Assembly: GCA_003021005.1 (NCBI GenBank)
Contig: PXRI01000010.1
Location: 1-64,000, forward strand
Direction of reading: 5' to 3'
Length of the DNA: 64,000 nucleotides
From: Halobacteriales archaeon QS_1_69_70
GTDB taxonomy: Archaea; Halobacteriota; Halobacteria; Halobacteriales; Haloarculaceae
Shown: positions 14,513 through 16,043 of the stretch, piece after piece
How the letters are laid out: the number at the start of each line of letters is the position of its first letter
Position numbering within the stretch: the first letter of the stretch is position 1
Notes under the pieces: model-generated
Database searches by the model: none
What the model was told of the DNA's origin: nothing
Seen by the model: the letters and a program-made list of their open reading frames with translations, nothing else
Position numbers and translations under genes: made by a program

Positions 14513-15610
14513 TCAGGCGAAGGTCTTCGACACCTCGGCCGCGGCGACCTCCTCGGTCTGCTGGATCTTGTCCCAGGCGTCCTCGAAGTCGGCCATCTCG
14601 ACCTCGGTGCGGTCGTCGCGGATGGCGTACATCCCAGCTTCGGTGCAGACGGCCTTGATGTCGGCGCCGGAGGCCTGGGCGGCGACGTCGGCGATGTCGC
14701 CGAAGTCCACGGCGTCGGCGACGTTCATGTCGCGGGTGTGGATCTCGAAGATCATCTCCCGGCCCTCGTGTTCCGGCTTGGGCACCTCGATGAGCCGGTC
14801 GAACCGGCCGGGCCGGAGGATGGCGCGGTCGAGCATGTCGAACCGGTTGGTCGCGGCGATGATCGAGATCTGGCCCCGGTCCTCGAAGCCGTCCATCTCC
14901 GACAGCAGCTGCATCATCGTCCGCTGGACCTCGGCGTCGCCGGAGGTCTTCGACTCCGTGCGCTTGGCCGCGATGGCGTCGAACGTCGCGTCGGTCTGGT
15001 TGGCGACGGCCTTCGCCAGCATCGTCTTTCCGGTCCCCGGCGGCCCGTGGAGCAGGACGCCGGACGGCGGGTCGATGCCGACCTCGTCGAACATCCCTGG
15101 GTTCTCGATGGGCATCTCGACGGTCTCCCGTACCTCCTCCATCTGCTCGTCGATGCCGCCGATGTCCCCGTAGGCGACGTCCGGCGACTGCTCGACCTGC
15201 ATGACGCGGGCGCGGACGTCTGTCTCGTCGTCCAGCGCCTTCACGATCGACAGCGAGTTGTTCACCGCCACGCGGTCGTCGGGCTCGATGTCGGTCCGCA
15301 TCTCCTCGGTGACCTCGGTGAGCGCCTCCTGGTTGTTCCCGTGCTGCTTGAGGATGACGCCCTCGTCGGTGAGTTCCTGGACGGTGGCGACGAAAAGCGG
15401 GGACTGCTTGAGCTTCTTGTTCTCGTGGGTCAGCCGCTCGAGCTTCTGCTGGTACTTGTTGTTCTCGGCGTTCGCGTCGAGGAGCTTGTCCCGCATCTCC
15501 TCGTTTTGCTGCTCTAAGATCTCCAGGCGCTCCTCGAGCGCAGCCACTTTCTCATGCTGTGACGCGCCGTCCTCGTACGGGAGGTCGGCTCCGTCAACAG
15601 TGTCGGTCAT
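14513..15610 (-). CDS. Proteasome-activating nucleotidase PAN, core-deleted
   Basis: PAN is the AAA+ ATPase ring that unfolds substrates for the archaeal 20S proteasome. The N-terminal coiled coil (about residues 18-70), OB domain, Walker A GPPGTGKT (189-196), sensor-1 AATNRFD (252-258), Arg-finger region ILRPGRFDR and helical C-domain are all present and well conserved. Between ATF (residue 210) and DAIAAKRTES (211) about 40 residues are missing compared with every PAN I recall. That gap normally holds the SELV/KFIGEG pore-loop 1 and the Walker B FIDEID. The join is in frame at 14980/14981. Length 365 against about 405. As written the protein should not hydrolyse ATP. It starts at the ATG 15608-15610. 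Confidence 0.9.
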   Translation of the reverse strand: MTDTVDGADLPYEDGASQHEKVAALEERLEILEQQNEEMRDKLLDANAENNKYQQKLERLTHENKKLKQSPLFVATVQELTDEGVILKQHGNNQEALTEVTEEMRTDIEPDDRVAVNNSLSIVKALDDETDVRARVMQVEQSPDVAYGDIGGIDEQMEEVRETVEMPIENPGMFDEVGIDPPSGVLLHGPPGTGKTMLAKAVANQTDATFDAIAAKRTESKTSGDAEVQRTMMQLLSEMDGFEDRGQISIIAATNRFDMLDRAILRPGRFDRLIEVPKPEHEGREMIFEIHTRDMNVADAVDFGDIADVAAQASGADIKAVCTEAGMYAIRDDRTEVEMADFEDAWDKIQQTEEVAAAEVSKTFA

Positions 15611-15779: not shown

Positions 15780-16043
15780 ATGAGTGCCAGCGACCTGGAG
15801 ACGGAGCCGGAGGCCCGAGGATGGGAGGCGGTCGCGGAGCTACCGCCGAGTGCGAAACTCGTCGCGAAGGTCCTGGAGTACAACGACCGGTTCACCCAGA
15901 GCCAGCTCGCCGAGGAGACGATGCTTCCGCCGCGGACGGTCCGGTACGCCATCGGCCGGCTGGAGGAGGTCGACGCGGTCGACGCCCGCTTTTCCTTTAC
16001 CGACGCGCGGAAGCGGGTCTACTCGCTCGCCATCGAGGACTGA
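15780..16043 (+). CDS. Small winged-helix transcriptional regulator
   Basis: An 87-residue protein. Residues about 25-85 form a winged helix: LVAKVLEYNDRFTQSQLAEE, then TMLPPRTVRYAIGRLEEV as the recognition helix, then a wing ending in RKRVYSLAIED. This matches the short MarR/ArsR-like HTH proteins common in haloarchaea. Ligand and targets are unknown. It is divergent from PAN and shares a 170-base intergenic region with it, so it may act on that region. That is only positional inference. Confidence 0.78.
   Translation: MSASDLETEPEARGWEAVAELPPSAKLVAKVLEYNDRFTQSQLAEETMLPPRTVRYAIGRLEEVDAVDARFSFTDARKRVYSLAIED

What the first reader, a model, noticed from the sequence alone, without database searches (positions are those of the whole stretch)
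14513..15610. PAN ATPase with a clean in-frame loss of pore loop 1 and Walker B
Walker A (GPPGTGKT) and sensor 1 (AATNRFD) are intact and well conserved, but ATF at residue 210 joins directly to DAIAAKRTES. PAN and proteasomal ATPases I recall have about 40 residues there, with the SELV/KFIGEG pore loop and FIDEID. Exactly that block is missing, in frame, with no other decay. Without Walker B and the pore loop the subunit could bind but hardly hydrolyse ATP or pull substrate. It may be a dominant modulator subunit next to a second PAN, a fresh lesion or an assembly artefact.
Basis: partly seen in the sequence, partly recalled or inferred. Interest (0 to 1): 0.78.

Follow-up and report, generated by a model that had tools for sequence, protein, structure and literature searches.

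The report
Assembly gap in an archaeal proteasome gene
The short proteasome ATPase gene is almost certainly a hole left by genome assembly, because the same assembly also lacks the catalytic centre of RNA polymerase, which no living cell can do without.

Summary
panA at 14513-15610 (minus strand) lacks exactly 120 bases: 40 codons with pore loop 1 and Walker B. The 737 nt comparable with its closest relative found (G011) are 96% identical. The biology proposed for it is very probably not real. The same draft (G000, 44 contigs, 82% complete) has similar losses in panB (71 nt, frameshift), two of three thermosome genes (63 and 94 nt), EF-2 (34 and 123 nt) and RNA polymerase A', where 26 residues including the catalytic NADFDGD are gone in frame. 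NADFDGD is encoded nowhere in the assembly. A cell cannot lack it, so the losses arose in assembly. Draft relatives break in the same block: G010 panA lacks 87 nt, G014 panA and panB contigs end in the same bases, and a G016 contig starts at the base where G000 resumes. All 8 genus genomes in 10 or fewer contigs keep the block. The exact join occurs in 1 of 392 genomes of the order, this one. One passing find is worth a look: EF-2 carries an intein in its P-loop.

The parts
14513..15610 (-). panA (proteasome-activating nucleotidase, Pan1 type) as assembled: 365 aa, lacking 40 codons
   Evidence: ORF and translation; NCBIfam NF047748 in two stretches, 685.7 bits against a cut-off of 750; 120 nt shorter than G011 panA over the comparable part
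14979..14982 (-). the join (between 14981 and 14980, 2 nt of ambiguity) where pore loop 1 and Walker B are missing
   Evidence: alignment with G011; exact degenerate join pattern at 14961-14989, found in 1 of 392 genomes
14899..14982 (-). 84-nt stretch identical to panB (G000:C17); the panA loss lies at its 5' end, the panB loss at its 3' end
   Evidence: maximal exact matches; its ends are set partly by the losses themselves
15780..16043 (+). divergent neighbour gene, 87 aa, kept beside panA in relatives (marks the gene as the panA orthologue)
   Evidence: ORF; tblastx matches beside panA in the loci shown, whose output was cut

Best explanation
The gene in the living archaeon is most likely an ordinary full-length panA. 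The 120 missing bases were lost when this draft genome was assembled. Very conserved stretches, shared with the paralogue panB and probably with related strains in the sample, form tangles in the assembly graph; contigs end there, and joining them dropped the block. The loss of conserved blocks from several unrelated genes of this assembly is shown. The exact program step is unknown. That the block exists in the organism is inferred, because no reads were available.
For: (1) RNA polymerase A' of the same assembly (G000:C9) stays open in frame but lacks the 26 residues NADFDGD...ARVL that G004 has. A degenerate pattern for the loop is absent from the 2.45 Mb assembly. (2) EF-2, of which one copy was found, has a 34-nt loss with frameshift and an in-frame 123-nt loss. 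(3) Two of three thermosome genes have losses of 63 and 94 nt at 97.7% and 98.7% identity to G011; the third aligns without a gap. (4) panB has a 71-nt loss with frameshift, and an 84-nt exact panA/panB repeat lies between the two lesions. (5) In G014 the panA and panB contigs end in the same bases and the two downstream contigs begin with the same bases. G016 contig C46 starts at GACGCCATCG, the base where the G000 sequence resumes. G011, G012, G016 and G018 have contig ends inside the gene. (6) G010 lacks 87 nt within the same block and 103 nt of a thermosome gene, and its RNA polymerase A' lacks about 35 residues with a frame change. G012 has a thermosome gene lacking 54 residues in frame. 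(7) panA is intact in 12 of 20 genus genomes. (8) 4 of 7 losses in G000 are in frame, P = 0.17 against one third, so there is no sign of selection for keeping the frame.
Against: No reads were seen, so the missing bases are not shown directly. The junctions have 0-3 nt of microhomology, so no simple overlap merge explains them. The 84-nt repeat is bounded by the lesions themselves, so its fit to them is partly circular. PAN is reported as not essential in Haloferax volcanii (PMC6267482, passage), so a real panA loss would be tolerable. Not every conserved gene is hit: three Cdc48-type genes keep normal Walker A to Walker B spacing, and thermosome C37 aligns without a gap. Two fragmented drafts, G013 and G015, have intact panA. 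A single-contig genome, G008, has frame breaks in panA and in a thermosome gene without a lost block, so finished genomes are not free of errors. That G000 is a metagenome bin is inferred from its contig number and completeness.
Confidence: 0.97

Rival explanations
1. A real, recent in-frame deletion in panA of this organism: a dead or decaying allele, with no function.
For: The join is clean, the flanks are conserved, and PAN is dispensable in a relative (PMC6267482, passage).
Against: The same kind of loss occurs in RNA polymerase A' and EF-2 of the same assembly, where it would be lethal. panB carries a loss at the other end of the shared tract. Drafts of relatives break in the same block.
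Confidence: 0.02
2. A functional short PanA that binds but does not hydrolyse ATP and modulates the PAN ring.
For: Only that Walker A, sensor 1 and the C-terminus are kept.
Against: No other of 392 genomes has the exact join. The AAA domain is matched in two pieces, the better one starting only at model position 66 of 131, so a stable fold is doubtful (inference). The partner panB is broken in the same assembly.
Confidence: 0.01

Closest known systems
Haloarchaeal PanA / Pan1 (NCBIfam NF047748, 405 positions)
   Same: N-terminal region, Walker A, sensor 1, lid and C-terminus; conserved gene neighbour
   Different: 40 codons missing, so it falls below the family cut-off (685.7 against 750 bits)
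Assembly breaks and collapses at repeats or very conserved stretches in draft genomes (general knowledge)
   Same: several unrelated conserved genes hit; contigs of G014 end in identical bases
   Different: the contig was closed without Ns, so the loss looks like a clean deletion

Membership tests
PAN (Pan1, NF047748) | whole-protein score over the curated cut-off of 750 bits | tested here: not met
   685.7 bits in two stretches for the window protein; 817.7 for an intact relative
PAN (Pan1, NF047748) | Walker A and sensor 1 | tested here: met
   GPPGTGKT and AATNRFD
PAN (Pan1, NF047748) | pore loop 1 and Walker B | tested here: not met
   absent in the assembled sequence; both patterns matched in 80 of 80 named relatives, a list of the best 80 of 570 and so biased to whole genes
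Assembly artefact | same kind of loss in genes that cannot be lost | tested here: met
   RNA polymerase A' catalytic loop and EF-2
Assembly artefact | reads carry the missing bases | not testable with these tools
   no reads at hand

The most novel reading that the evidence does not exclude
The deletion is real in at least part of the population and yields a hydrolysis-dead PanA that joins or poisons the PAN ring, while the lesions in the other genes are separate assembly errors.
Probability: 0.02. Interest if true: 0.5.

Novelty: not a real feature. Interest (0 to 1): 0.06.

Why it matters
It matters as a caution. In this assembly, clean losses of catalytic blocks occur in several conserved genes and imitate dramatic biology. 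Checking an indispensable gene such as RNA polymerase A' in the same assembly exposes the artefact in one step. Annotation pipelines and gene-loss surveys that use such drafts would inherit these false deletions.

Tried and rejected
Modulator or pseudo-subunit: rejected because of the essential-gene control and the single occurrence of the join. Lost block kept elsewhere in the assembly: the relative's 120-nt block finds panB (84%) and three weaker places (68-75%) in the Cdc48-type genes, no second panA copy. Deletion by recombination between short repeats: only 0-3 nt of microhomology. Lesion lying in the most conserved part of panA: not clearly so; mean genus identity in 60-nt steps at the lost block was 0.87-0.91, much like its neighbours (11 of the 12 intact genomes, as the script did not catch G019). 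RadA as a further control gave nothing for G000, where no full RadA was found. No structure was predicted, because the sequence is judged artefactual. Paper searches (assembly errors; listings and starts of abstracts seen only) gave nothing I rely on. The pore-loop, Walker, sensor and catalytic-loop labels are recalled, not from a call.

Full report
What is there. The panA gene at 14513-15610 on the minus strand encodes 365 aa. ATF joins directly to DAIAAKRTES. Against the panA of G011, 120 nt are missing in frame and the rest is 96.3% identical over the 737 nt that could be aligned before G011's contig ends. Pfam AAA is matched in two stretches, the better one starting at model position 66.

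Which gene it is. NCBIfam Pan1 is the best model, but the protein stays below its cut-off (685.7 against 750 bits). The neighbour gene at 15780-16043 lies beside panA in the relatives shown, whose output was cut. The window's own record is not named.

Is it found elsewhere? A degenerate pattern for the exact join hits 1 of 392 genomes of the order, the window's own. It would miss other joins, such as the one in G010. Among 20 genus genomes (my tally), panA is intact in 12: G001-G007, G009, G013, G015, G017 and G019. It is cut by contig ends in five: G011, G012, G014, G016 and G018. It has an internal in-frame loss in two, G000 and G010. In one single-contig genome, G008, the block is present but a frameshift follows it. 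The seven genomes cut by contig ends or carrying an internal loss are drafts of about 30 to 320 contigs. All 8 genomes in 10 or fewer contigs (G002-G009) keep the block. Two intact ones, G013 and G015, are fragmented drafts too, so fragmentation alone does not predict a break.

The same assembly is damaged elsewhere. I looked at ten gene loci in G000 and found lesions in six: panA, panB, two of three thermosome genes, EF-2 and RNA polymerase A'. The third thermosome gene showed no gap in alignment, and three Cdc48-type genes showed normal motif spacing, which is a weaker check. An eleventh fetched locus (L157) was not classified, and no full RadA was found. The losses are 120, 71, 63 (beside a 3-nt difference that G010 shares), 94, 34 and 123 nt and 26 residues in RNA polymerase A'. 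Four of these seven are in frame, which chance allows (P = 0.17). The panA loss being in frame is therefore no sign of function.

The decisive control. RNA polymerase A' lacks the residues NADFDGDEMNMHALQNEEARAEARVL between CPPY and MRVQEQ, in a frame that stays open for 999 codons. A degenerate pattern for the loop is absent from the whole assembly. The loop holds the metal-binding aspartates of cellular RNA polymerases (established knowledge), so no living cell could lack it. EF-2 has two lesions and no second copy was found. At 82% completeness another copy could in principle be missing, but each of the 12 genus genomes with a full EF-2 has one, and each of the three finished relatives searched has one RNA polymerase A'. 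The losses are thus properties of the assembly, and the panA loss has the same form.

Other drafts show the same thing. G010 lacks 87 nt of panA within the same block and 103 nt of a thermosome gene, and its RNA polymerase A' lacks about 35 residues with a change of frame. G012 has a thermosome gene lacking 54 residues in frame. In one search, 15 further genus genomes were searched for thermosome genes. G008 and G016 show a change of frame without a lost block there, and some copies end at contig ends.

How it may have arisen. panA and panB share exact stretches; the longest per genome ran from 29 to 92 nt in the 14 genomes compared, some of them with incomplete genes. In G000 an 84-nt identical stretch lies between the panA loss and the panB loss, although its ends are set partly by the losses. 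In G014 the upstream contigs of panA and panB end in the same bases and the downstream contigs start with the same bases, which is what a shared repeat does to an assembly graph. G016 contig C46 starts at GACGCCATCG, just where the G000 sequence resumes. EF-2 and RNA polymerase A' have no such close paralogue, so sharing with related strains in the sample is the likely cause there; this is inferred. The junctions show only 0-3 nt of microhomology, and the step that closed the gaps is unknown.

What would be true if the loss were real. Haloferax volcanii grows without its PAN ATPases (PMC6267482, passage seen), and panA can be knocked out (PMC2704935, abstract seen). A real loss would therefore be viable, and this is the main point in favour of the rival. 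It does not outweigh the control above.

Verdict. An ordinary panA gene, damaged in assembly. Interest is low. The recommended follow-up is read mapping.

Noticed in passing
G000:C8:229629-231206 (L158:830-2407): EF-2 carries an in-frame insert of 526 codons in the P-loop (HVDHGK|C...HN|TTLTD). Pfam finds an intein splicing domain and a LAGLIDADG domain. The 12 full-length EF-2 genes of the genus lack it. Two narrow searches for an EF-2 intein in print returned no paper.
   Followed up: partly
G000:C9:8152-10857 (L171): RNA polymerase A' lacks 26 residues including the catalytic NADFDGD in the assembly; used here as the decisive control.
   Followed up: yes
G000:C43:70835-72229 and G000:C5:9066-10438: Two thermosome genes with lost blocks (63 nt in frame, 94 nt with frameshift) at about 98% identity to G011.
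   Followed up: yes
L175:1741-3087 (G010:C15): RNA polymerase A' of G010 has an insert of about 1.35 kb in the same frame between two matched parts; it may be an intein, not tested.
   Followed up: no
L016 (G008:C1:1065796-1067006): A single-contig genus genome has a frameshift in panA near sensor 1; the span is 1211 nt where most intact relatives have 1212. It looks like a sequencing error.
   Followed up: no
L049-L057 with the panA loci of the same genomes: The longest exact panA/panB stretches fall at different places of the AAA core in different species, which would fit repeated gene conversion between the two genes.
   Followed up: no
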